From: Echinarachnius parma
Lineage: Eukaryota; Echinodermata; Echinoidea; Clypeasteroida; Echinarachniidae
DNA: 64,000 nucleotides
Direction: 5' to 3'
Assembly (NCBI GenBank): GCA_037951105.1
Contig: JBAMJV010000877.1
Coordinates: 35,001 to 99,000 of the forward strand
The notes under the pieces were generated by a model. It did not search any database and was not told the DNA's origin. It saw only the letters and a list, made by a program, of their open reading frames with translations. Positions 8,379 through 40,631 of the stretch are shown in pieces. Numbering within the stretch: position 1 is the stretch's first letter; each line of letters opens with the position of its first letter. A program made the position numbers and the translations under genes.

Positions 8379-8739
8379 CTGCCACCCTTTCCATTCATCA
8401 AAATAATTGTAATTTGATACCATTTTAATGGAAATGATCTCTTCATTACGATGGCATATTAATCGTAAGGATTATGCAAATGGGGTGTGTACAGCGAGCC
8501 GGAATATGGAGATGGTTCGAGTGTTAAATCAAACAAAAAGATATGTAGTTGACAAAAAATCAGAGCGTTGCATTTTTTTCGAGCTTTTGGGAGGATTTTT
8601 TAGCATTTCAAATAAAATATTCATGATTCAAATTGATATCAACGGAAAGCCCAACAACTCTTCTGTATGAAAATGTAAAATTTATAATGATTTTAGTAAA
8701 GGGCGGCTGCAGGGAGATGAATGTGGGGGAGCCTCAAAA
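8379..8739. other. No recognised gene
   Basis: An 80-codon open frame at 8428-8670 has no family resemblance and no repeat support. Treated as non-coding. Confidence 0.4.
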
Positions 8740-20758: not shown

Positions 20759-20872
20759 TTGCAAGGAGTAATCATAAATGATTAAGAAGGAAGAATAATA
20801 GTAGGCGTAGCTTAATAAGCAATGTTCCTCCTTTTAATCCGCCAAATGAACAAAGGCACTGGTCGAAAAATT

Positions 20873-20944
20873 GGTCTCCGCCAGGACTCGAACCTGGGTC
20901 TCCGGCTTGGAACGCCGATGCCTTAACCACTAGGCCACGGGGAC
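20873..20944 (-). tRNA. tRNA-Gly(TCC)-like gene, copy 1
   Basis: It folds as a cloverleaf: acceptor GTCCCCG/CGGAGAC with one C-A mismatch at the fourth pair, D stem GCCT/AGGC, anticodon stem TCGGC/GCCGG with loop GTTCCAA, four-base variable loop, T arm CCAGG/CCTGG. Pol III boxes are intact (A: TGGCCTAGTGG, B: GGTTCGAGTCC) and a T5 terminator follows. Odd points: the acceptor mismatch, G at position 32 and C at the discriminator. It may be a tRNA-derived repeat rather than a working tRNA. Confidence 0.7.
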
Positions 20945-21273
20945 CGTGTGATTAAAGACAGATCCAGTTCAGGTCATTGGCAAGTCAATCTCTCGGCCCT
21001 TTGTACTCAAGTATTCATGGGGAAGGAGTTACGAACAATGCAAGCCGCCTTTTACTTCAGCTGGATCACAATAGAGTGATTCAAGTATTAGTTAGAACAT
21101 AATATTAGCGAGAAGTGAACTAATACATACAGCTTCGGTTTCTTCCAATATATAAATAATTGCAAGGAGTAATCATAAATGATTGAGAAGGAAGAATAAT
21201 AGTAGGCGTATCTTAATAAGCAATGTTCCTCCTTTTAATCCACCAAATGAAAAAATGCACTGGTCGAAAAATT

Positions 21274-21345
21274 GGTCTCCGCCAGGACTCGAACCTGGGT
21301 CTCCGGCTTGGAACGCCGATGCCTTAACCACTAGGCCACGGGGAC
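21274..21345 (-). tRNA. tRNA-Gly(TCC)-like gene, copy 2
   Basis: Identical in sequence to copy 1 and in the same orientation, 401 bp away. Same mismatch and the same downstream T5. Confidence 0.7.
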
Positions 21346-21577
21346 CGTGTGATTAAAGACAGATCCAGTTCAGGTCATTGGCAAGCCAATCTCTCGGCCC
21401 TTTGTACTTAAGTATTCATGGGGAAGGAGTTACGAACAATGCAAGCAGCCTTTTACTTCAGCTGGATCACAATAGAGTGATTCAAGTATATAACTCCTTC
21501 CCCATGAATACTTGAGCACAAAGGGCCGAGAGATTGGCTTGCCAATGACTTGAATTGGATCTGTCTTCAATCACACG

Positions 21578-21649
21578 GTCCCCGTGGCCTAGTGGTTAAG
21601 GCATCGGCGTTCCAAGCCGGAGACCCAGGTTCGAGTCCTGGCGGAGACC
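21578..21649 (+). tRNA. tRNA-Gly(TCC)-like gene, copy 3 (inverted)
   Basis: Same 72-nt sequence on the opposite strand, in the inverted copy of the repeat. T5 follows at 21653. The open frame through it is a translation of tRNA sequence, not a gene. Confidence 0.7.
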
Positions 21650-21764
21650 AATTTTTCGACCAGTGCCTTTTTTCATTTGGAGGATTAAAAGGAGGAACAT
21701 TGCTTATTAAGCTACGCCTACTATTATTCTTCCTTCTCAATTTCATGTATGATTATTCCTTGCA

Positions 21765-23415: not shown

Positions 23416-23540
23416 TAGTGGGGGCTCTTAGGTCATGGGGTGTGCACTTCCGGATAAAAGCATGAATTTTGGCACACAGATAGTTTAGACCTTCCTCTTC
23501 AAGAAATTTGATGGAAGCAATTTTGCACGGGCCATTCTTG

Positions 23541-24060
23541 GCCGCCATCTTGGATTTCAAAATGGCCGCCATCTGGCACCTACTTTCATCAATATCGCAG
23601 CAACTAAAACAGCTAGAGAGGTTTTTTCAGTGGCTATACCCACATAATGGGGGCCAACGAATCACCTGAATCGAATATCAAGACTTAAAATGGCAGCCAT
23701 CTTGAATTTCAAAATGGCCGCCATCTGGCACCTGTTTTCATCAATATCTCAGCAACTGAAACAGCTAGAGAGTTATTTTCAGTGGCTATACCCACATAAT
23801 GTGGGCCAACGAATCACCTGAATCGAATATCAAGACTTCAAATGGCAGCCATCTTGAATTTCAAAATGGCCGCCATCTGGCACCTGTTTTCATCAATATC
23901 TCAGCAACTAAAACAGCTAGAGAGTTATTTTCAGTGGCTATACCCAAATAATGGGGGCCAACGAATCACCTGAATCGAATATCAAGACTTCAAATGGCAG
24001 CCATCTTAAATTTCAAGATGGCCGACATGGGAAGCCTATATTTTACTCCATCTCAGAAAC
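23541..24060. repeat. Left-arm array of the foldback element (about 155-bp units)
   Basis: At least three near-identical units, each with AAAATGGCCGCCATCTGGCA, TCAGCAAC, AACAGCTAGAGAG and CCAACGAATCACCTGAATCG, then decaying relatives to 24400. Confidence 0.88.
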
Positions 24061-27100: not shown

Positions 27101-28445
27101 TGGTGACCATTTTGAAATTGAAGACTAAATTGCTTCCAACCACTGTGGGTGCATCTGACTTAGGTCTTTCAAATGTACTCCATGTTATTTATTGCAAACA
27201 CCAGATTGCATACCCACAGTAACGTACTCTGTTGCTTTTTTAGTCTCGCATATTTGAATCAAATCTATATCGACTTATCATGGCAGCCATACCGAACTTC
27301 AAGATGGCCCAAACATTTCAAGTCTTTTAAGTCAATCCAGGTGATCTGTTGACCCCGAAAATGTGTTTAAAGACACTAAAAAGAACTCTCCATCCTTTTT
27401 AGTTTCTGAAATACACGCAAAATAGGTTCCAGATGTCAGCCATTATGACATTCAAGATGGCGGCCGAAATGGGTCTTGCTTATTTGCTTTCAACCTCATG
27501 TTTCTTTTAAAGACAGACAAGTCGTTGGCCACAAAAAAAAGGCATAGCAACTGGAAAGAACTTTGTGCCGTTTTTAGTCTCTGATATAAAGAGTAAAATA
27601 TGCTAATCCCCATGGCGGCCATCTTGAAATTCAAGATGGCTGCCGATTGACGCCTTTGAGGTGGATTCAGGTGATTCGTTGCACCCAAATAAGTGGGTAT
27701 AGCCGCTAAAATTAATGCTTTAGCTGTTTTAGTTTCTAAAAGTAGATAAATGGGAAGTGCATAATTGCTCAATTCCAACCATTCATTGGTAAGTTGACCA
27801 CGAACAGATAGGCATATCGATCAGTTGAAATGAACTCCGTAATTGCTTCAGTTTCTAAGATGGAGTTAAACATAGGCTTCACGTGATTCGTTGGCCCACA
27901 TTATGGAGGTATAGCCACTGAAAATAACTCTCTAGCTGTTTTAGTTGCTGAGATATTGAGGAAAACAGGTGCCAGATGGCGGCCATTTTGAAATTCAAGA
28001 TGGCTGCCATTTTAAGTCTTGATATTCGATTCAGGTGATTCGTTGGTCCCCATTATGTGGGTATAGCCACTGAAAATAACTCTCTAGCTGATTTATTTGC
28101 TGAGATATTGATGAAAACAGGTGCCAGATGGCGGCCATTTTAAATTCAAGATGGCTGCCATTTGAAGTCTTGATATTCGATTCAGGTGATTCGTTGGCCC
28201 CCATTATGTGGGTATAGCCACTGAAAATAACTCTCTAGCTGTTTTAGTTGCTGAGATATTGATGAAAAAAGGTGCCAGATGGCGGCCATTTTGAAATCCC
28301 AGATGGCGGCCAAGAATGAGCCGTGCAAAATTGCTTCCATCAAATTTCTTGAAGAGGATAGTCTAAACTATTTGTGTGCCATAATTCATGCTTTTATCCA
28401 GAAGTGCACACTTGGTCTCATATATTGACTTAAGAGCCCCCACTA
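27100..28445. repeat. Right-arm array of the foldback element
   Basis: Inverted counterpart of the left arm: three clear units (27890-28310) with CGATTCAGGTGATTCGTTGG and CAGATGGCGGCCATTTTGAA, plus decayed units from 27100. The sequence nearest the outer end mirrors 23420-23560 closely. Confidence 0.85.
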
Positions 28446-28697: not shown

Positions 28698-30225
28698 CGG
28701 AACATCGTGAAGCGTTCCCTCACATTCGAAATGATGTAGTAGTAGTATTTGCCAGCTTATAATTATTTACTCTTACGGCATCATATATGTGAATATGATT
28801 ATCATCTGCTAAATTAGACACGGTTCAACGTTGTCTTTATTTTCTTTTTGTCTTTACAACGACAAATAATCATGCAAACCATCAAAAATGTATGGGAATC
28901 ATGCTTCAACGAGTAAATTAAAATCAGAAATATCTTATTTATAACAAGTATAACGACCATTATGGCGTCATGCAACCGCATGCACACTTATGGTATTATT
29001 TTTTATACTCAACTTCCTCTTCTGAGTGTAAAGATTTCTTTAGTCGTTAGTTCAAATAACACAAGATCGTTGCTCGTTACCTAATTTCAAGACGCCATGA
29101 TATGCCGTGTGAAATAAGACTGTGAATACACAAAAGGCGCTATGTGAAACCGTGACTTTCCCCAAATTCGATGACGCACATGAAACTTGGTCCGTGTTAA
29201 TTCGCTATAGAATTTGCTACATTGTTATAGTAAAACGCCTGAAAATATTCACTGATTGTTCACATCTTGTTAAACGACGCTCAGATTGTGTGATTTATAT
29301 GTTTACATTTTGTTTCACGACGTTCAGACTTTTCAACTCAAGGCAAACCACAAACCACAAATACAAGGCAAAACGAGAGCCTACAAAAAGAGTAGTTCGG
29401 GTTTGACGTCACGTTTTAAAGCGATCCGAGTTTCATAAACATCAATGGCAGCTTCCATGCTGTACGCGATGAAAGGGATTAGCCCGTAGAGCGAATGACT
29501 TTAAATGATGCTTAAAGGGGCAATGTTGGTCGTATTTGCATGTAATTATGTTTGACTGGTGCTGGAAGAGAACATAATTAAAGGTAAATAGATGTTTTGG
29601 AAACTTTCTCTTTAAGCTACCATAGTTGTATGGCTACATGCCAGAAGGTATACCCACTGTTATAGGGGGGAAGTAACACATTAGCGAGGTGTTAATTAGT
29701 CGGAAGTGAGTCACTTCCGACGACAACGTCACGAACAAAGGGGTGTTAATTAGTGGGAAATGCAGATCGAGTATCCTTCTTCAACGATAATGGTAAACAT
29801 GTTTAAACATGTCCTGCTCCCCTTGTTGAGAATATCGAGTCTCAAATGACATTGAGGGTAATGATCCTTATTTATTATATGTAAAGTGATTTTCATGTAG
29901 TTTTGTAAAGCCGATCCAAGCTCGGGTAAATATTTCAGATATGTTTGAATTATTCTGACCTCTTTTCGAGCTGTCCCGAGTTGTTCCGAGTTGTGCCGAG
30001 TTGCTCCGAGTTTACTCCGAGTTGCTCCGAGTTTACTCCGAGTTGCTCCGAGTTTACTCCGAGTTGCTCCGAGTTGCTCCGAGTTTACTCCGAGTTGCTC
30101 TGAGTTTACTCCGAGTTGCTCCGAGTTTACTCCGAGTTGGTCTGAGTTGCTCCAATTCCTGATATTACGACCTCTGTGCAAATCATTGTGTCTGGTTGAT
30201 TATAACTTTTATCTTACAATTTGTG
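28698..30225 (+). repeat. Long inverted repeat, left arm (1,528 bp)
   Basis: Reverse complement of 39919-41833. The outer limit is CGGAACATCGTG at 28698; the inner limit is ACAATTTGTG at 30225. After removing the MITE and one TTAA inserted in the right arm, lengths are 1,528 and about 1,523 bp. A 94-codon frame (29122) is present in both arms with one indel, which reflects the duplication, not a gene. Confidence 0.92.
29985..30150 (-). repeat. 21-bp minisatellite, array 1
   Basis: Reverse-complement units of GGAGCAACTCGGAGTAAACTC and shorter variants. It sits at the inner end of the left inverted-repeat arm. Confidence 0.92.
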
Positions 30226-30230
30226 CAGGT

Positions 30231-30488
30231 TGGATAGTTTCAATGTGTCTTGTCAAATTATACTGTCTGCTGAACATTTTGTGACACAGTGGACAGGTAT
30301 GCATTTTGACCGATGAGGTAAAATTAATGTTTGCTCTTTGAACGCTTGTTAGTGATTAACAAGGAATGTACAAAGTTATTCATTGATATATTGACGAGTT
30401 AGATTTGAAATCTGTCAAGTCACTGTTTGCTAGTATGAGTGTTCAGTCATCCCTACTCGCATGATTGATCATGGCACTTACACGACTG
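30231..30488 (-). repeat. Partial 840-bp unit with truncated zinc-finger ORF
   Basis: Matches 32777-33031. It contains the first part of the zinc-finger coding sequence and the sequence before its ATG, but the acidic part is missing, cut at the junction with the inverted-repeat arm. It ends CACGACTGCTAAGTG, the unoccupied form of the 5 kb CCCA element's site. Confidence 0.82.
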
Positions 30489-30584
30489 CTAAGTGTACTC
30501 AACTTGCAAGATTGAAGTTGTTATCACCTAGACAGAATGATTTTCGCAGAGGTCGTAATATGGCTCGTATCATCTCGGAACAAT

Positions 30585-30725
30585 TCGGAGCAACTCGGAG
30601 TAAACTCGGAACAACTCGGAGCAACTCGGAGTAAACTCGGAGCAACTCGGAGTAAACTCGGAGCAACACGGAGTAAACTCGGAGCAACTCGGAGTAAAAC
30701 TCAGAGCAACTCGGAGTAAACTCGG
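30585..30725 (+). repeat. 21-bp minisatellite, array 2a (left of hAT)
   Basis: Units of GGAGCAACTCGGAGTAAACTC. The array is cut by a hAT element and resumes at 32422-32480. The intact equivalent is at 38166-38370. Confidence 0.92.
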
Positions 30726-32421
30726 CAGTGGCGTAGCTACGGGGGGGGGGGGGCACGGGGGGCACGTGCCCCGCAATCGTTTGGCAAAAAAAAAAAAAAA
30801 AATGACGACCCGACATGAAGCCAAATGTGTCTACAATGTATATCATTCATTATTATCACGTTTTATTTAATGTGTGATAATAATCATTATCAACGATAAT
30901 AACCAAGAACATAACAGTCGTTCCCTAGTACTAGCAATAGCGCACCTATATCAGTTTGAAGAATCCTTCCAATATAGCGCCTTATGCAAATTTTCAGTCC
31001 CGTGCGCGAGGATCGACGCTCACCGCATTTCAGAAGACATAGAGCGCGTATAGGCCTAACAAACTTCCTTGCATGGTAAATCGTTTATCATACCAAGGGC
31101 CCTTTTAGGATCTTGAATCTGCCTCCCGCTTTTATAGATAATTTTGACGCCTTCATGCAGGCTATAAAGGCGCATAGCTGCACTACGTAGTCCTAAATGT
31201 CTAGGTAAAGACAAACTTCTTTTACTAATTTCCTCACTCCAAATGCACCCGTTCCATTAATTCATGATGCATAATCTAGGCATATTGTTGACGATCATGA
31301 TTGAAGGAGCACCAGTCATCTTCTCCAGAGTCGATATCTGCATCAGTTGAGCATAGGCCTACTGAAACTAATTCAAAGGACCCGAGCATAGCTGGGTTTT
31401 TTTTAGTTTGAAAAGGACTGTAAATCTTAATTTTTGCCGCGCGCTTCGCGCGCATATTCTGAAATACTGATATATACGAAATTTATTAGACCCTCATCTA
31501 TCATGTCTATAGCACACTATCATCGGAAAATAAAATAATTTGAAATAATATATCTTTTAGTAAATTCGGTCCATATGCGCTGAATGCAAATAAAATTGGA
31601 ATATTATGTCCCCCACATTAGAAAGGGGAGGAGATTGTCCCCCTCCTTTGTCATTAAGTATGTTTGGTTCCATACTTATATACTTTATATTACGTGAAAT
31701 TTCTGTCTTAGGTGTGCACCAAATCGCACGATTTCAGGCCCTATTGTGGGAGGGGGACACCCCCTCCCACACCCTCCCCCAATCGGTCGCTTCGCTTCCT
31801 CGCAATGTCTCCCCTCCACTTTTGCTTAGTTCCATTGGAGCTCAATGCCCTAGACTATATCGATGGCTCTATAGTATACAGGATCACGTGGATCCATCTC
31901 ACGGGCTTAATCTTTCCTCGCTATTACCGTTTTAAAATACGTAACGAGTAGATTCACTATTATATACCATTTTAACACCCATGATTAAGACAATGATAAA
32001 GACAATAATGACCATACTTCTACAGTGATATTTTAAACACCAATTTCAAAAATTTCAAAAAAATTGGGAGGGGGTGAACCCCCTCCCACACCCTCCCCCA
32101 AATAAATGTAGACAAGCATACGGCGTGAGAGTATTTGAGTCTGGTGTGTGTGTGTACACGTAGGTTTGATTGTGTGTGTATACTTTATCATGAGGGAAAT
32201 GATTTCTTTAATTCAGTGTTATCAAATTTCCTTCCAAGGTATGCACCAAATTGCATTATTTCAAGTAAAAATTTGCAAAAGCTCCCTACCGTGGGAGGGG
32301 GGACACCCCCCTCCCACACCCTCCCCCCCCCCTCTGGCGCTACGCGCCCTCGGGCTTGGTCGCTCCGCTCCCTCGCAGCTGTGCCCCCCCCCCCAATCAC
32401 TTGACCCTCGCTACGCCACTG
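30726..32421. mobile_element. Non-autonomous hAT-type transposon, 1,696 bp
   Basis: The ends CAGTGGCGTAGC and GCTACGCCACTG are inverted. An 8-bp target duplication AAACTCGG flanks it (30718-30725, 32422-32429), the hallmark of hAT, and it is inserted in the minisatellite. The interior has three CCCTCCCACACCCTCCCCC-type blocks (31762, 32080, 32309) and a CGCGCGCTTCGCGCGC palindrome at 31439; related blocks occur in the hAT element at 55746. No transposase; the proline-rich ORFs are low-complexity translations. Confidence 0.9.
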
Positions 32422-32849: not shown

Positions 32850-33039
32850 TTTGACCGATGAGGTAAAATTAATGTTTGCTCTTTGAACGCTTGTTAGTGA
32901 TTAACAAGGAATGTACAAAGTTATTCATTGATATATTGACGAGTTAGATTTGAAATCTGTCAAGTCACTGTTTGCTAGCATGAGTGCTCAGTCATCCCTA
33001 CTCGCATGATTGATCATGGCACTTACACGACTGCCCATA

Positions 33040-33670
33040 TAACAATGATACGTTGGCCCATCGTTGGCCCAATGTAGGCGGTCATGTTGGCCCAACGTCA
33101 AAACGTGACGTCTAGCCCACGTCATTCTTGCCGCTGGGCCCTCGTTGGCCCAACCCCCATACGCCAACGTCAATTGCCAATGTTGAGCCAACGTTTGCCC
33201 AACCATTTATTTTGCTATTTCTGACGTCAAGCCAACATTGAGCCGACTAAACCCCAACGTTAATACGACTATATAAGTCAATGTCGGGCCAACGTTAAAA
33301 CGTGACGTTTGGCCCACGTCATTCTTGCCGCTGGGCCCTCGTTGGCCCAACCCCCATAAGCCAACGTCTTGCTACGATGTTGAGCCAACGTTTGCCCAAC
33401 CTTTTATTTTGCTATTTCTGACGTCAAGCCAACATTGAGCCAACTAAACCCCAACGCTGATACGACTTTATAAGTCAATGTCGGGCCAACGTAAAAACGT
33501 GACGTTCGGCCCACGTCATTCTTGCCGCTGGGCCCTCGTTGGCCCAACCCCACAAGCCAACGTCGTACAAGTGTTGGGCCAACGTTTTCCCGACCCTTGC
33601 CCAACCTTTCAGTTGGCTACTTATGACATCGGGCCAACGTTTAGCCAACCTTGAGCCAACCTTTAGCCAA
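33040..33670. repeat. Left-arm array, three 197-bp units
   Basis: GCCGCTGGGCCCTCGTTGGC recurs at 33130, 33327 and 33524. Units also share ACGTGACGT, ATTTTGCTATTTCTGACGTC and TGAGCCAAC. Confidence 0.92.
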
Positions 33671-34754
33671 CAATACGAAAACTAAAAAATTGATAAGATA
33701 AAAGATTGATAGGCTGCATGGTGTTACAAATTCTACCCTACCTTCATGCAAACACTATTCCTACATCCTTATCCTACACCTAATCCTATACCTATCATTC
33801 TAACCTATCATATCCTATCGTCTTATCAACATACTATACAATCGACTTCCTATGCATACTATGTACATTTGTTAGTGGTTAGTAATTGTCAAGAGTAGAT
33901 TGAGAGTATATTCTAAAATAATTAGCCTTTGAATCATATTCATAACACTATATTCAGGTGTCATTTATAGTTTTATAAATTATATAGAAAAACAAGGACA
34001 TGATAACACTGTTTTCAATACAAATAATAGCAAAAATAGCAATTTTTCTGTTCACTATATGATCGTTTATATTCGATCATGAACCCCGATAATAATTCTG
34101 CGTTGAGCCAACGTCGGCCCAACGTCGGCCCACTTACGACGCATTGGGATCGATTGCGAAACCAACCTTTACCGATCATAAATCACTAATTAATAGATGT
34201 ATCAAAGTGAATAAAGAGGGGACTGTGCAAAGGGGCTTTGCACCCCTAATATTTTGTTAATAACATTTCATTTAATTGTATTAATTTACCAATTCAACAA
34301 AATCATATAATGTACAATATTTCACAATTTCCCGTCATTTAGGACAGACATTGCATAGTATGTTAGTCAAAACTAGCCCTTGAATAACTATAAGCAATAC
34401 AAGTATATAATATACATTATATTATCGATAATATTACAACAATCCAGAATGTTCTAAAAAGGTTTTCATACATTGTTGGTAGAACATAATTAAAATATAT
34501 TTTAATCATTGTACAATTTACGAAATCCATATCGTGACATCGTACATTTTAAGTCACATGGAGGTTCATCTAAAATTACTGCCCCAATGTATGAAATGGA
34601 CTGTTTCCCTATATCTGTCTTGATTTAGCTATCTTGCATTTTGTTAATCAATTTTCCCCGTGAAATGTATAGCAGTGGTTAATCTTTTGTTCGTAATATT
34701 CGTATCTATATTACTACAAATGAAGTACAATCCACTTCATCAATGATGTGTTCA
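33671..34754. other. CCCA element interior, no gene
   Basis: AT-rich, no ORF over 60 codons. A short relic of the arm motif (GAGCCAACGTCGGCCCAACG) lies near 34106. Confidence 0.5.
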
Positions 34755-34758
34755 TTAA

Positions 34759-35321
34759 AAGGATAGTTGAGTTTTTGTAAAGAGAGTTCAGCTTTGGTTA
34801 ACCTGAGTGTTATTAACTAAAACCTGCATCATTACATTACAAACTGACAGTTATAACTTACTCCACCATGCTCGAAAGGAATAACACAACACATTACAAA
34901 CGACTAAGTAAAAAGCATGTTCCCATTAAAAAAGAGACGTTAAAACTCAAAAGGACGCTCTTTAAAAACCTATTGGTTTTAAAAGGTCTTTACAAATAAA
35001 ATGTTGTGCATGTCATGATTTGTTGAAATAGTGATTAGATAGAGAGATAATCAACAATTATTTAAAAACATCTTTAATAGTACCTTTTTAAAAAGGAGAA
35101 GCAATTTTTTAAATTTGTTAGCGGCCGGTTCAAAGTTATATTTTGTGTTCCCGAACATTTTTAAAATGTTATGTTAATGGATATCTCAGGCATTTCTGAA
35201 CCAATTTTGATCAAATTAAGTTAATATTCTGTCATTACAATTGTATGCTCTTTCAAATTTGACACTCCGTTTTTTTTATTATCTCACACAAATCTATACC
35301 AAAACTCAACTCAACTAACCT
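34759..35321 (-). mobile_element. 550-bp TTAA MITE nested in the CCCA element
   Basis: TTAA on both sides (34755-34758, 35322-35325). It starts AAGGATAGTTGAGTTTTTGT and ends with ACTCAACT-type sequence then AACCT. 563 bp with the family interior. Confidence 0.87.
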
Positions 35322-35325
35322 TTAA

Positions 35326-35999
35326 TACGAATCCTTGATACCAAAAAACATTTTGTCGGTAACGATTTCTATATAAAAAGCATGAATTTGGTCTAATATA
35401 TTTTCTTTACACCTATATGAAATGCGGCAATATTTGACCTCATTACATTTAACTCTATGTGTAAATCCTCTCTAAAAAGTGCGAAACCGGCTAGAATCAT
35501 CTGCAAACAATCCCAAATGGAAATAATAAAGTAGGTTTGGAAATCGTTTGTATATGAGGAAAAACGCTGGTTCCACTACAGATCATTTTGAAACTACACA
35601 TGTAATCGGTAATCGAGAAGAAAAAAACATCATAAGTTATAGTGATATCGGATAAATACCCCTTGACCACGGGCACCGAGTGGGATGTGTGCAAAGTCTA
35701 TGCGAATTTCATGAAGTTGTAGGGAAAAGTGTTGTTAGTCCTTTGCGAAATCTAAAAAGATTCTGTTTGTAACACTTCCTGCACTTTTGTCACTGATACG
35801 TACACAGTTGATGAATTAAATTGATCAATGCTATAAACTTCGCAGTGGTGTTCATACAATAATAACATAACTTGAACCGTACAAAAAATTGTAGACGTGG
35901 TGTGGTAAAATGTTCGCGTTCTCGTTTGTCCTTAATTAAGCAAGACAATTAATCCAATATTGCTGCGCTCTACCAATTTACCCTGTAGGAGTAGAACGT
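35326..35999. other. CCCA element interior, nothing recognised
   Basis: No coding or repeat signal found. Confidence 0.4.
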
Positions 36000-36125
36000 G
36001 TATGTAATTGTACTTAATTGTATATCGTGTGGATTGATTGTGAGTGTGTCCGATGACCCCCGATGACCAGGGTAATAATATCATTAAATTAGGCGCTATA
36101 TAAATCGAAACATTATTATTATCTT
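36000..36125 (+). mobile_element. Possible SINE/LINE 3' tail
   Basis: It ends GGCGCTATATAAATCG followed by an ATT-repeat tail. This is the general shape of many SINE and L2/CR1 3' ends. No tRNA-related head was found. Confidence 0.4.
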
Positions 36126-36187
36126 ATTTTTATTGTCATTATATAATTTCATCAAACGATTATTTGGCTGCACATTCGTGAATGCTA

Positions 36188-36576
36188 CCCAACTAACAAT
36201 TGAACGTTTTCTGAACGTTCTAAACAGGTTCAAAGTTGGTTATTTGGACGTTATGTGAAAACGTTTTTAAAACGTGTATTTGTGGAAGGTTGAAAACGTT
36301 TTTAGAACGTTCCAAATGGACGTTTTTAAATCGTTGTTTAAACGTTAGAAAAAACAACAAAAAACCTTTCAATGTATTTGATTTGAAGTGCAAGTACCAG
36401 CAGAAAACCTGTCGGACGCTGGAGACGTTTTAAGAACGTTTTTTAAACGTTGATTAAAGACGAAGATCTACTTGACCTAATAAAAAAGTTTTGTAAACGT
36501 TTTGTAAACGTTGATTAAAGACGAAGACCTATGTGACCTAATACAAACGTTTTGTAAATGTTTTGTGTTTGCTGGG
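36188..36576. mobile_element. 389-bp MITE with CCCA ends and AACGTTTT repeats
   Basis: It starts CCCAACTAACAATTGAACGT and ends (reversed) CCCAGCAAACACAAAACATT. TA lies on both sides (36186-36187, 36577-36578). The interior is a series of AACGTTTT and AAACGTT motifs. The open frame inside is repeat sequence. Confidence 0.8.
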
Positions 36577-36779
36577 TAGTGCCCGTAATTAATGTACTCG
36601 GGTGTCTATTCACGAAAGCTTATGCGTATGCACTTATTCGGAATTTGAAAGACCGATTCCAACGATTACACGGCAATGCGTGAATTTGAATGATTTCGAT
36701 TGAAAAAGTGTCAAATTGAGCGGGAAAATGTTATGATTAATAAGAAGTATTCATCATATGTATCATAACTGTTGCTATC

Positions 36780-38075
36780 AGTTCGTCGTTGGCCAAATCT
36801 CATTCAACCAATCAATAACGACACTACGTAGTAGGCGAAACTTTGGCCTAACGCTGGCTTGCCTACCGTCGAAATGTGGTTGTTTGTTAAAGGTTGGTTT
36901 GACGTCAGCTACCAACCAATATCGAACGCCATTCATTAACCCAATTACCAAGTAGGCGAAACGTTGGCTTAACGTTGGCTTGCCTAGTGCCGAAATGTGA
37001 TTGTTTTGTAAAACGTTGGTCTGACGTCAATTAGCCAACCAATTTCCAACGCCACTCATTGACCAAATGTTGTAGTAGGATGAAGCGGTGGCCCAACGTT
37101 GGCTTGCCTACTGTCGACATGTGGTTGTTTGTCAAATGTTGGTTTGACGTCAGCTAGCCAACCAATATCAAACGTCGCTCATTGACCGAATGTTGTAGTA
37201 GGCGAAACGTTGGACTAACGTTGGCTTGCCCACCGTCGAAATGTGGTTTTTTGTTAAAGGTTGGTTAGACGTCAGCTAGCCAACCAATATCCAACGTCGC
37301 TCATTGACCGAATGTTGTAGTAGGCGAAACGTTGGCCTAACGTTGGCTTGCCTCCGTCGTAATGTGGTTGTTTGTCAAACGTTGGTTTGACGTCAGCTAG
37401 CCAACCAATATCGAACGCCATTCATTGACGTAATTACGTAGTAGGCGAAAAACGTTGACTTAACGTTGGCTTGCCTATTGTCGAAATGTGGTTGTATGTC
37501 AAACGTTGGTTTGACGTCAACTAGCCAACCAATATCTAACGCCACTCATTGACCGAATGTTGTAGTCGGCGAAACGTTGGCCCAACGTTGGCTTACATAC
37601 CGTCGTAATGTGGTTGTGTATTAAACGTTGGTCTGACGTTAACAAGCCAACCAATATCCTACGCAAGTCATTGACACAATGTCGTAGTAGGCGAAACGTT
37701 GGTATAACGTTGGCTTGCCTACCGTCGAAATGTGGTTGTTTGCCAAACGTTAGTACGACGTCAGCTAGCCAACCAAGATCCAACGCCGCTCATCGACACA
37801 ATGTCGTAGTAGGCGAAACGTTGGCCCAACGTTTGTTTTTCGACCATAGAAATATGATTGTTCGTCCAACTATCACCCAACGTTGTTTCAACGTACATTT
37901 GCCAATCAGTTTGCCAACAGTCAACAGACAACGTTGGCTTAACGTTGTTTTAACGTCAGCTCGCCGACTGCAAAGATGTGGTTGTAAATTTACCTTAGGC
38001 CAACGTTGGCTTAACGTTGTTTTGCCAACCGCGACGGTGCCGACTATAGACTACGTTGGGCCAACGTAGCATTGT
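36780..38075. repeat. Right-arm array, about nine 121-bp units
   Basis: GTAGTAGGCGAAACGTTGG or close variants recur every 121-123 bp from 36829 to 37806. Units also share CGTTGGCTTGCCTACCGTCG, TGACGTCAGCTAGCCAACCA and CATTGACC. The last 250 bp towards the terminus are diverged. Confidence 0.93.
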
Positions 38076-38085
38076 TATCTGGGTG

Positions 38086-39805: not shown

Positions 39806-39989
39806 TGTTGGGTCACTTTACCCAACACTTCGTAGATTTGGGTGACCTGTTTCACAAAAGGTACAGAACCGTTCACGTGATGTGAACGTGAACGTGACGT
39901 GACTGTTCGTACCAAGCCCACAAATTGTATGATAAAAGTTATAATCAACCAGACACAATGATTTGCACAGAGGTCGTAATATCAGGAAT

Positions 39990-40175
39990 TGGAGAAACTC
40001 AGACCAACTCGGAGTAAACTCGGAGCAACTCGGAGTAAACTCAGAGCAACTCGGAGTAAACTCGGAGCAACTCGGAGCAACTCGGAGTAAACTCGGAGCA
40101 ACTCGGAGTAAACTCGGAGCAACTCGGAGTAAACTCGAAGCAACTCGGCACAACTCGGAACAACTCGGACAGCTC
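39990..40175 (+). repeat. 21-bp minisatellite, array 4
   Basis: Same unit as the other arrays, inverted relative to array 1. Confidence 0.92.
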
Positions 40176-40631
40176 GAAAAGAGGTCAGAATAATTCAAAC
40201 ATATCTGAAATATTTACCCGAGCTTGGATCGGCTTTACAAAACTACATGAAAATCACTTTACATATAATAAATAAGGATCATTACCCTCAATGTAATTTG
40301 AGACTCGATATTCTCAACAAGGGGAGCAGGACATGTTCAAACATGTTTGCCATTATCGTCGAAGAAGGATACTCGAACTGCATTTCCCACTAATTAACAC
40401 CCCTTTGTTCGTGACGTCGTCATCGGAAGTGACTCACTTCCGACTAATTAACACCTCGCTAATGTGTTACTTCCCCCCTATAACAGTGGGTATATCTTCT
40501 GGCATGTAGCCATACAACTATGGTAGCTTAAAGAGAAAGTTTCCAAAACATCTATTTACCTTTAATTATGTTCTCTTCCAGCACCAGTCAAACATAATTA
40601 CATGCAAATACGACCAACATTGCCCCTTTAA

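What the first reader, a model, noticed from the sequence alone, without database searches (positions are those of the whole stretch)
33034..38083. 5 kb element with CCCA ends whose arms are arrays of a CCAACGTTGG palindrome
Inverted ends, a 2-bp TG flank and a related unoccupied site at 30488 show a mobile unit. The arms are different arrays (197-bp left, 121-bp right) that share only the CCAACGTTGG theme. Such dense self-complementary arms could form hairpins or be multiple transposase-binding sites. No transposase is inside and I cannot name the superfamily.
Basis: partly seen in the sequence, partly recalled or inferred. Interest (0 to 1): 0.7.

Follow-up and report, generated by a model that had tools for sequence, protein, structure and literature searches.

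The report
Animal CACTA-type transposon with array arms
A 5 kb jumping-DNA element without its own enzyme, one of several hundred in this 1.2 Gb genome, whose ends and target duplications match the known animal branch of the CACTA (En/Spm) transposons; it is well preserved but of an ordinary kind.

Summary
33034-38083 is a mobile element with imperfect inverted ends (CCCA...TGGG; outer 31 nt 90% complementary), a TG duplication and an unoccupied duplicate of the target at 30487-30488. Its end sequence occurs 402 + 403 times in the 1.2 Gb genome (reversed-pattern control 0). Of 20 end pairs sampled, 19 carry a 2-bp target duplication and one a 3-bp one; ten dinucleotides occur. The arms are different arrays, 197 bp x 2.6 (left) and 122 bp x 8.2 (right; 7-18 in 12 other copies), built from an AACGTT core repeated at 11-bp spacing. 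No transposase was recognised in the copies read. In the same genome a family with CCCAAGTCGAAATT ends, 2-bp duplications (8 of 10 pairs) and array arms includes an element encoding an 807-aa Transposase_21 (CACTA) protein. CCC ends, 2-bp duplications and Transposase_21 are published marks of animal CACTA ('TRC') elements, and asymmetric subterminal repeats are typical of CACTA. Best reading: a non-autonomous animal CACTA element moved in trans, its arms serving as multiple binding sites. No autonomous copy with AACGTT arms was found, so the partner is inferred.

The parts
33034..38083 (.). whole non-autonomous CACTA/EnSpm (TRC-like) element, 5050 bp
   Evidence: ends, duplication and empty site; 402+403 end matches in the genome
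33032..33033 (+). target-site duplication TG, left copy
   Evidence: sequence; empty site with a single TG at 30487-30488
38084..38085 (+). target-site duplication TG, right copy
   Evidence: as above
33034..33064 (+). left terminal inverted repeat (CCCATATAACAATG...; most other copies read have CCCAGATAACAATG)
   Evidence: 31 nt, 90% complementary to 38053-38083; other copies
38053..38083 (-). right terminal inverted repeat (reads CCCAGATAACAATGCTACGTTGG inward)
33034..33673 (+). left arm: 197-bp unit x 2.6 (33084-33595) followed by an 11-bp unit x 3.5 (33633-33671)
   Evidence: 2.3-2.6 units in 18 other copies, 1.9 in L029, none reported in L021 and L025
34102..34140 (+). small isolated cluster of the 11-bp motif in the core
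   Evidence: 11-bp array 34108-34132, 2.3 copies
36188..36576 (+). nested 389-bp element of the same kind (CCCAACTAACAATTG... / CCCAGCAAACAC...), TA on both sides, 11 exact AACGTT
   Evidence: its left end lies behind the same flank (gaatgcta) in 9 of the 20 other copies and in L030
36786..38083 (+). right arm: 122-bp unit x 8.2 (36827-37833) plus irregular motif copies out to the end
   Evidence: 7-18 units in the 12 other copies where the array was reported, some of them interrupted or cut by the end of the stretch
30487..30488 (+). unoccupied paralogous target (TG)

Best explanation
The element is a non-autonomous member of the animal branch of the CACTA/EnSpm superfamily (the 'TRC' elements). 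Shown: CCCA...TGGG ends, a 2-bp target duplication without fixed sequence, several hundred copies, no transposase recognised in the copies read, and asymmetric subterminal arrays of a short self-complementary motif phased at 11 bp, about one DNA turn. Shown for a second family in the same genome: a Transposase_21 gene in an element with a CCCA end and array arm, and the same kind of duplication in other, mostly short, members with that end. Inferred: a CACTA transposase made by another element cuts at the CCC ends and inserts with a 2-bp stagger. The AACGTT arrays act as a ladder of binding sites for an element-encoded DNA-binding protein that pairs the two ends, as the TNPA-type proteins of plant CACTA elements are thought to do. 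The right array grows and shrinks by unequal exchange or slippage.
For: 2-bp duplication in 19 of 20 sampled end pairs (in one of these the match runs on to 4 bp) and a 3-bp one (TAT) in the other, against 34 of 380 two-base agreements when left and right flanks of different copies are paired. With 8 further copies ten different dinucleotides are seen in 27 copies with a 2-bp duplication. Paralogous empty site. Transposase_21 (PF02992) present in the genome: 17 matches, all over the cut-off, open frames up to 874 aa, 0 of 14 control genomes. Four of these proteins rescanned against Pfam: all match Transposase_21 and no other transposase family. The L077 element (807-aa transposase) has two copies whose match stops at 8419 and 8416, within 2 bp of a CCCAAGTCGAAATT end (8418) with a 10/19-bp array arm behind it. 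That end occurs 589 + 577 times as a 26-mer with <=3 mismatches (control 0) and forms inverted pairs, with 2-bp duplications in 8 of 10 (control 16 of 90). Across nine termini read here the outer 13 bp share CCC at 1-3, A at 8 (8 of 9), A at 11 (9), A at 12 (8), T at 13 (7) (termini picked by hand, two families contribute both ends). Literature: animal TRC elements have CCC cores, 2-bp duplications and Transposase_21, including a CCCAGTCAAC end in A. aegypti (PMC1636069, passages). Hydra Spongebob/EnSpm-4N1 has CCCAGCCAACATTGAC ends and 2-bp duplications (PMC4298943, passages). A soybean CACTA element has 4 subterminal repeats on the left and 24 on the right (PMC2613891, passages).
Against: No transposase gene was recognised inside any copy with the CCCAGATAACAATG end: 20 copies read in whole or part, one more full copy and the interiors of 4 long ones; ORFs were judged by eye, not scanned against Pfam. 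That is a small part of about 400 copies. The transposase-bearing loci read (L076-L079) have almost no AACGTT (0, 0, 0 and 1 copies), so the partner is not identified. The first apparent link (a CCCAGATAGCAG end beside the L076 transposase) was tested and fell: all six copies run on unchanged past it. The Transposase_21 score is modest for L077 (31.7 bits, cut-off 28.6) and at the cut-off for L079 (28.8); it is stronger for L078 (50.8), and L077 is 33% identical to L078 over most of its length. The left end of the L077 element was not reached, so its own duplication was not seen; 2 of the 10 pairs of its family lack a 2-bp duplication. One of 20 pairs of the finding's family has 3 bp, not 2. 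The CCCTTACA ends proposed for L076 and L078 rest on one copy each.
Confidence: 0.85

Rival explanations
1. A foldback element of the TU/FB/Tetris type, whose arms are long inverted arrays that form hairpins needed for movement.
For: Array-built arms; strong single-strand folding of the left arm (z -7.65 against 20 shuffles).
Against: The two arms are not inverted copies of each other: only the outer 31 nt pair at 90%, the next pairs listed are scattered motif matches. Duplications are 2 bp in 19 of 20 and 3 bp in one, whereas Tetris has 8-10 bp (PMC4079207, passages).
Confidence: 0.04
2. A member of another 2-bp-duplication group: Tc1/mariner/pogo (TA) or ISL2EU (AT).
For: The duplication is 2 bp; AT (5) and TA (4) are among the commonest of the 27 dinucleotides.
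Against: 18 of 27 two-base duplications are neither TA nor AT. ISL2EU ends usually begin GG with target A|AT|T (PMC4482050, passages).
Confidence: 0.04
3. The element belongs to a separate, unnamed superfamily that has converged on CCC ends and 2-bp duplications, with a transposase not yet seen.
For: No autonomous copy with AACGTT arms was found among those read, and the transposase-bearing elements use other arm motifs.
Against: Partly shared 13-bp terminal consensus and the same duplication rule as the family of the Transposase_21-bearing L077 element; published animal CACTA ends are nearly the same.
Confidence: 0.07

Closest known systems
Animal TRC elements of the CACTA superfamily (SmTRC1 of Schistosoma mansoni; A. 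aegypti and T. castaneum TRCs)
   Same: CCC core at the ends (A. aegypti CCCAGTCAAC), 2-bp target duplication (in 7 of 14 SmTRC1 copies, and in the other two species), Transposase_21 in SmTRC1 (PMC1636069, passages)
   Different: This copy is non-coding and has about 0.64 kb and 1.3 kb array arms; such arms were not described in the passages read (the S. mansoni end has an internal repeat of a 15-base motif)
Spongebob_HMa / EnSpm-4N1_HM of Hydra
   Same: CCCAGCCAACATTGAC end, 2-bp duplication, 5.8 kb, assigned to TRC/CACTA (PMC4298943, passages)
Plant CACTA elements (En/Spm, Tgmt* of soybean)
   Same: Short imperfect ends and asymmetric direct and inverted subterminal repeats regarded as sites for TNPA-like proteins (PMC2613891, passages)
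   Different: CACTA instead of CCC core, 3-bp duplication in Tgmt*, different motif
Foldback elements (Tetris of Drosophila; TU of sea urchin)
   Same: Arms made of tandem arrays (for TU recalled)
   Different: 8-10 bp duplications in Tetris (PMC4079207, passages) and inverted arms; here 2 bp and unlike arms

Membership tests
Animal CACTA / TRC (EnSpm) | CCC core at both termini | tested here: met
   CCCA...TGGG; 402 + 403 end matches, 28 inward-facing pairs among 100 listed places
Animal CACTA / TRC (EnSpm) | 2-bp target-site duplication, no fixed sequence | tested here: met
   19 of 20 pairs, the other 3 bp; ten dinucleotides in 27 copies; empty site
Animal CACTA / TRC (EnSpm) | asymmetric subterminal repeats | tested here: met
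   unlike arrays of an 11-bp-phased AACGTT motif; the feature is taken from plant CACTA
Animal CACTA / TRC (EnSpm) | Transposase_21 encoded by the autonomous partner with the same ends | tested here: inconclusive
   present in a family with similar but not identical ends; not recognised with AACGTT arms in the copies read
Foldback (TU/FB/Tetris) | long arms that are inverted copies of each other | tested here: not met
   only the outer 31 nt pair at 90%
Foldback (TU/FB/Tetris) | 8-10 bp target duplication (as in Tetris) | tested here: not met
   2 bp in 19 of 20 and 3 bp in one
ISL2EU | AT target duplication and GG terminal bases | tested here: not met
   AT in 5 of 27; ends begin CCC; rule from PMC4482050
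Tc1/mariner/pogo | TA target duplication | tested here: not met
   TA in 4 of 27; rule from PMC10045372, passages
Satellite array | tandem array without paired mobile ends | tested here: not met
   fixed paired ends with duplications

The most novel reading that the evidence does not exclude
Within one genome the CACTA elements have split into several 'arm codes': AACGTT at 11-bp phase, CCCATAGAAA at 10 bp, CCTGTGGTA, and CAAGCTTGC, each self-complementary or present in both orientations. They keep one loose 13-bp end consensus. The AACGTT group may no longer have a coding member, and may be moved across codes by transposases whose own arms use another motif, so that end recognition and arm recognition evolve apart.
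Probability: 0.25. Interest if true: 0.5.

Novelty: new member of a known kind. Interest (0 to 1): 0.33.

Why it matters
It puts a name on an abundant unlabelled repeat family (about 400 copies, judging by half the end count) and ties it to a superfamily through ends and duplications. The spread of array motifs among elements with related termini is a natural test set for an old CACTA question: whether the protein that binds the subterminal repeats co-evolves with the repeats while the cutting enzyme stays fixed on the ends.

Tried and rejected
Rejected: the CCCAGATAGCAG end at L076:6076 as the end of a transposase element; six copies are identical past it. Rejected: foldback, ISL2EU, mariner and satellite readings (see membership). 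Led nowhere: string searches of the literature for the repeat motif (210 papers, 20 listed, none of those about this kind of element by title) and for 'CMCWR' (3 papers, none on transposons by title); that terminal formula for CACTA is recalled and comes from no call. Four long copies (C496, C690, C861, C1244) were opened in search of an autonomous member; no transposase was recognised, only unrelated inserted sequence including reverse-transcriptase-like ORFs in one. The 1.54 kb extra segment shared by L012, L016 and L023, and with further sequence in L021, is a self-inverted insert at a 3-bp overlap, not a coding region. Host not identified. Not answered by the tool: the genome count of the nested element's end pattern (and repeats), of CCCAGNTARCAANNNAACGTTG and of the L076 end pattern, and the extents of the element core, L079 and L085.

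Rows dropped from the duplication count: of the 20 copies L009-L028, 6 (L009, L011, L018, L024, L026, L027) showed both ends and were counted. L019 and L022 have altered terminal bases and were left out; L014 was cut at its left end; 9 (L010, L012, L013, L015, L016, L020, L021, L025, L028) showed a left end only, their right end not found in the stretch; L017 showed no intact right end of this family, and L023 an altered left end. The 8 copies added to the 20 were typed into that script by hand. The script's own tally counted the 3-bp case (C497, TAT) as TA; I have taken it out, so TA is 4 and the total 27. Of the 28 pairs, 20 were fetched for flanks; three more (C876 the window, C760 = L029, C459 = L024) were known; 5 (C954, C1048, C1076, C1197, C1244) were not examined. 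Of the inverted pairs of the CCCAAGTCGAAATT end listed, I picked 10 for flanks; at least three others (C1183, C1259, C1669) were not examined.
Full report
What was checked. The finding describes a 5 kb unit at 33034-38083 with inverted CCCA ends, a TG flank, an unoccupied relative of the target, and arms made of two different arrays. All of it is in the sequence. The first-listed inverted pair of the region is the two termini, 31 nt and 90% complementary. Joining the flanks without the element and aligning them to 30400-30560 gives a continuous match with a single TG at 30487-30488. The surrounding DNA is a direct duplication that differs by only 1-2%, and only one of its two copies holds the element, so the insertion is probably younger than that duplication.

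Arms. The left arm (33034-33673) holds 2.6 units of 197 bp and then 3.5 units of 11 bp; the right arm (36786-38083) holds 8.2 units of 122 bp. The common thread is AACGTT at 11-bp spacing: exact AACGTT 6 times on the left and 25 on the right against shuffle means of 0.4 and 1.8. For the motif with up to one mismatch, pairs 11 bp apart occur 5 and 14 times against 0.1 and 0.2 expected; on the left, spacing 22 is equally common. In the six termini of AACGTT-bearing families the first ACGTT begins at base 17 in 5. The left array has 2.3-2.6 units in 18 other copies, 1.9 in L029, and none was reported in L021 and L025. The right array ranges from about 7 to 18 units in the 12 other copies where it was reported, as expected of an array changed by slippage or unequal exchange. 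The left arm folds strongly as single-stranded DNA, but this follows from its self-complementary motif and does not show a function.

Genome-wide. The window lies in a 1.2 Gb genome of 14,790 contigs. The end pattern occurs 402 times forward and 403 times reverse with up to 2 mismatches, against 0 for the reversed pattern. Among the 100 places listed I count 28 inward-facing pairs 3-11 kb apart. The flanks of 20 pairs were fetched: 19 carry a 2-bp duplication (in one the match runs on to 4 bp) and one carries a 3-bp duplication (TAT), while the two bases agree in 34 of 380 pairings of flanks from different copies. With 8 further copies the 27 two-base duplications are AT 5, TA 4, AA 4, TC 3, TG 3, TT 2, GA 2, AC 2, CA 1, CC 1. 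So the enzyme makes a 2-bp stagger with no fixed target. Over the core segment 33674-36187, 20 other copies differ from the window by about 3-12% (L026 lacks the core), so the family has been moving over some time.

No enzyme inside. The window copy has no open frame over 167 aa, and that one is array-derived. ORFs in 20 further copies, one full copy and the interiors of four long copies were judged by eye. The long ones look array-derived, retroelement-like or NACHT-like; I recognised no transposase. One copy, L026, is an 815-bp deletion form that keeps both ends.

Which superfamily. A 2-bp duplication of free sequence excludes the TA-specific mariner group (PMC10045372, passages) and ISL2EU, whose target is A|AT|T and whose ends usually begin GG (PMC4482050, passages). 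I searched the genome for the CACTA transposase domain Transposase_21: 17 matches over the curated cut-off, with open frames up to 874 aa and none in the 14 control genomes. A search with the 807-aa protein of locus L077 gives 54 matches. Four of the proteins were rescanned and match Transposase_21, L078 well (50.8 bits) and L077 and L079 near the cut-off of 28.6 (31.7 and 28.8); L078 also matches DUF1258. The first apparent link, a CCCAGATAGCAG end next to the L076 transposase, failed: the sequence of all six copies continues unchanged beyond it.

The second link held. The matches of the L077 element to its two copies stop at 8419 and 8416. The sequence there, read inward from 8418, is CCCAAGTCGAAATTCCCATAGAAACCCATAG..., a CCCA end with a 10/19-bp array arm behind it. 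This end occurs 589 + 577 times (control 0) and forms inverted pairs of about 0.4-1.5 kb and one of 7.7 kb. Of 10 such pairs, 8 have a 2-bp duplication (TA, TA, TT, CT, TT, TT, TT, AT) and 2 do not (control 16 of 90). Two other transposase loci (L076, L078) have arrays of CCTGTGGTA and CAAGCTTGC that run up to CCCTTACANAAAT; these ends rest on one copy each and are only proposed. Nine termini side by side share CCC, A8 in 8, A11 in 9, A12 in 8 and T13 in 7. The termini were chosen by hand and two families contribute both ends, so this is descriptive.

Literature. Animal CACTA-related 'TRC' elements were reported to carry Transposase_21, a CCC core and 2-bp duplications (7 of 14 SmTRC1 copies), with a CCCAGTCAAC end in Aedes aegypti (PMC1636069, passages). 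A Hydra family has the end CCCAGCCAACATTGAC and 2-bp duplications and was assigned to TRC on those grounds (PMC4298943, passages). Plant CACTA elements have asymmetric subterminal repeats, in one soybean element 4 on the left and 24 on the right, regarded as sites for TNPA-like proteins (PMC2613891, passages). The window element meets each of these marks that a non-coding copy can meet.

Mechanism proposed. Shown: ends, stagger, arrays, copy number, and a CACTA transposase in a family with similar ends. Inferred: a CACTA transposase acting in trans cuts at the CCC ends; a partner protein binds the AACGTT ladder, about one site per helical turn, and brings the ends together; right-array length is probably not critical because it varies more than twofold among copies. 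Not shown: an autonomous element with AACGTT arms, binding, or current activity.

Limits. The host is not identified.

Verdict. A real, well-formed, multi-copy mobile element, and a new member of a known kind. Its interest lies mainly in the diversity of array motifs among elements with related termini.

Noticed in passing
window 29512-30225 and 39919-40631: A large inverted pair (98.3%, 714 nt) with arms carrying 10/21-bp CTCGGAGCAACTCGGAGTAAA arrays encloses the finding's element and other inserts; it may be another array-armed element.
   Followed up: partly
window about 30725-32420: A segment bounded by CAGTGGCGTAGCTACGG and GCTACGCCACTG sits inside one copy of the CTCGGAG array; it looks like a separate inserted element.
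   Followed up: no
window 36188-36576: A 389-bp CCCA...TGGG element with TA on both sides and 11 exact AACGTT lies behind the same flank in 9 other copies and in L030, so it was captured before these copies spread (count of AACGTT).
   Followed up: yes
L012, L016, L021, L023 (position about 1723 of the element): Four copies share a self-inverted insert (1.54 kb in three, about 4.3 kb with further sequence in L021) at a 3-bp overlap at one place, so a copy carrying a passenger element has itself multiplied.
   Followed up: partly
L017:5195-8902: A 3.7 kb element with CCCAGGTAGCAAGCC ends and TA on both sides appears to sit inside the 122-bp right array; the repetitive ORFs listed there suggest long arrays of a related motif in its own arms.
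   Followed up: partly
20 insertion sites, L034-L073: The base just left of the duplication is C or T in 18 of 20 sites, with no mirror bias on the right; seen after the fact and untested.
   Followed up: no
C1014, C7900, C5093, C10366 (and C6328 in part): The 775-aa transposase locus is reported as 100% identical over 8.8 kb at four places and 6.6 kb at a fifth, which suggests very recent movement or duplicated assembly.
   Followed up: no
window 20872-21650: Three tRNA-Gly (TCC) genes within 800 bp on both strands.
   Followed up: no
window 23539-24028 and 27878-28312: Two inverted arrays of a 151/152-bp unit about 4 kb apart (92.6% match in the self-comparison).
   Followed up: no
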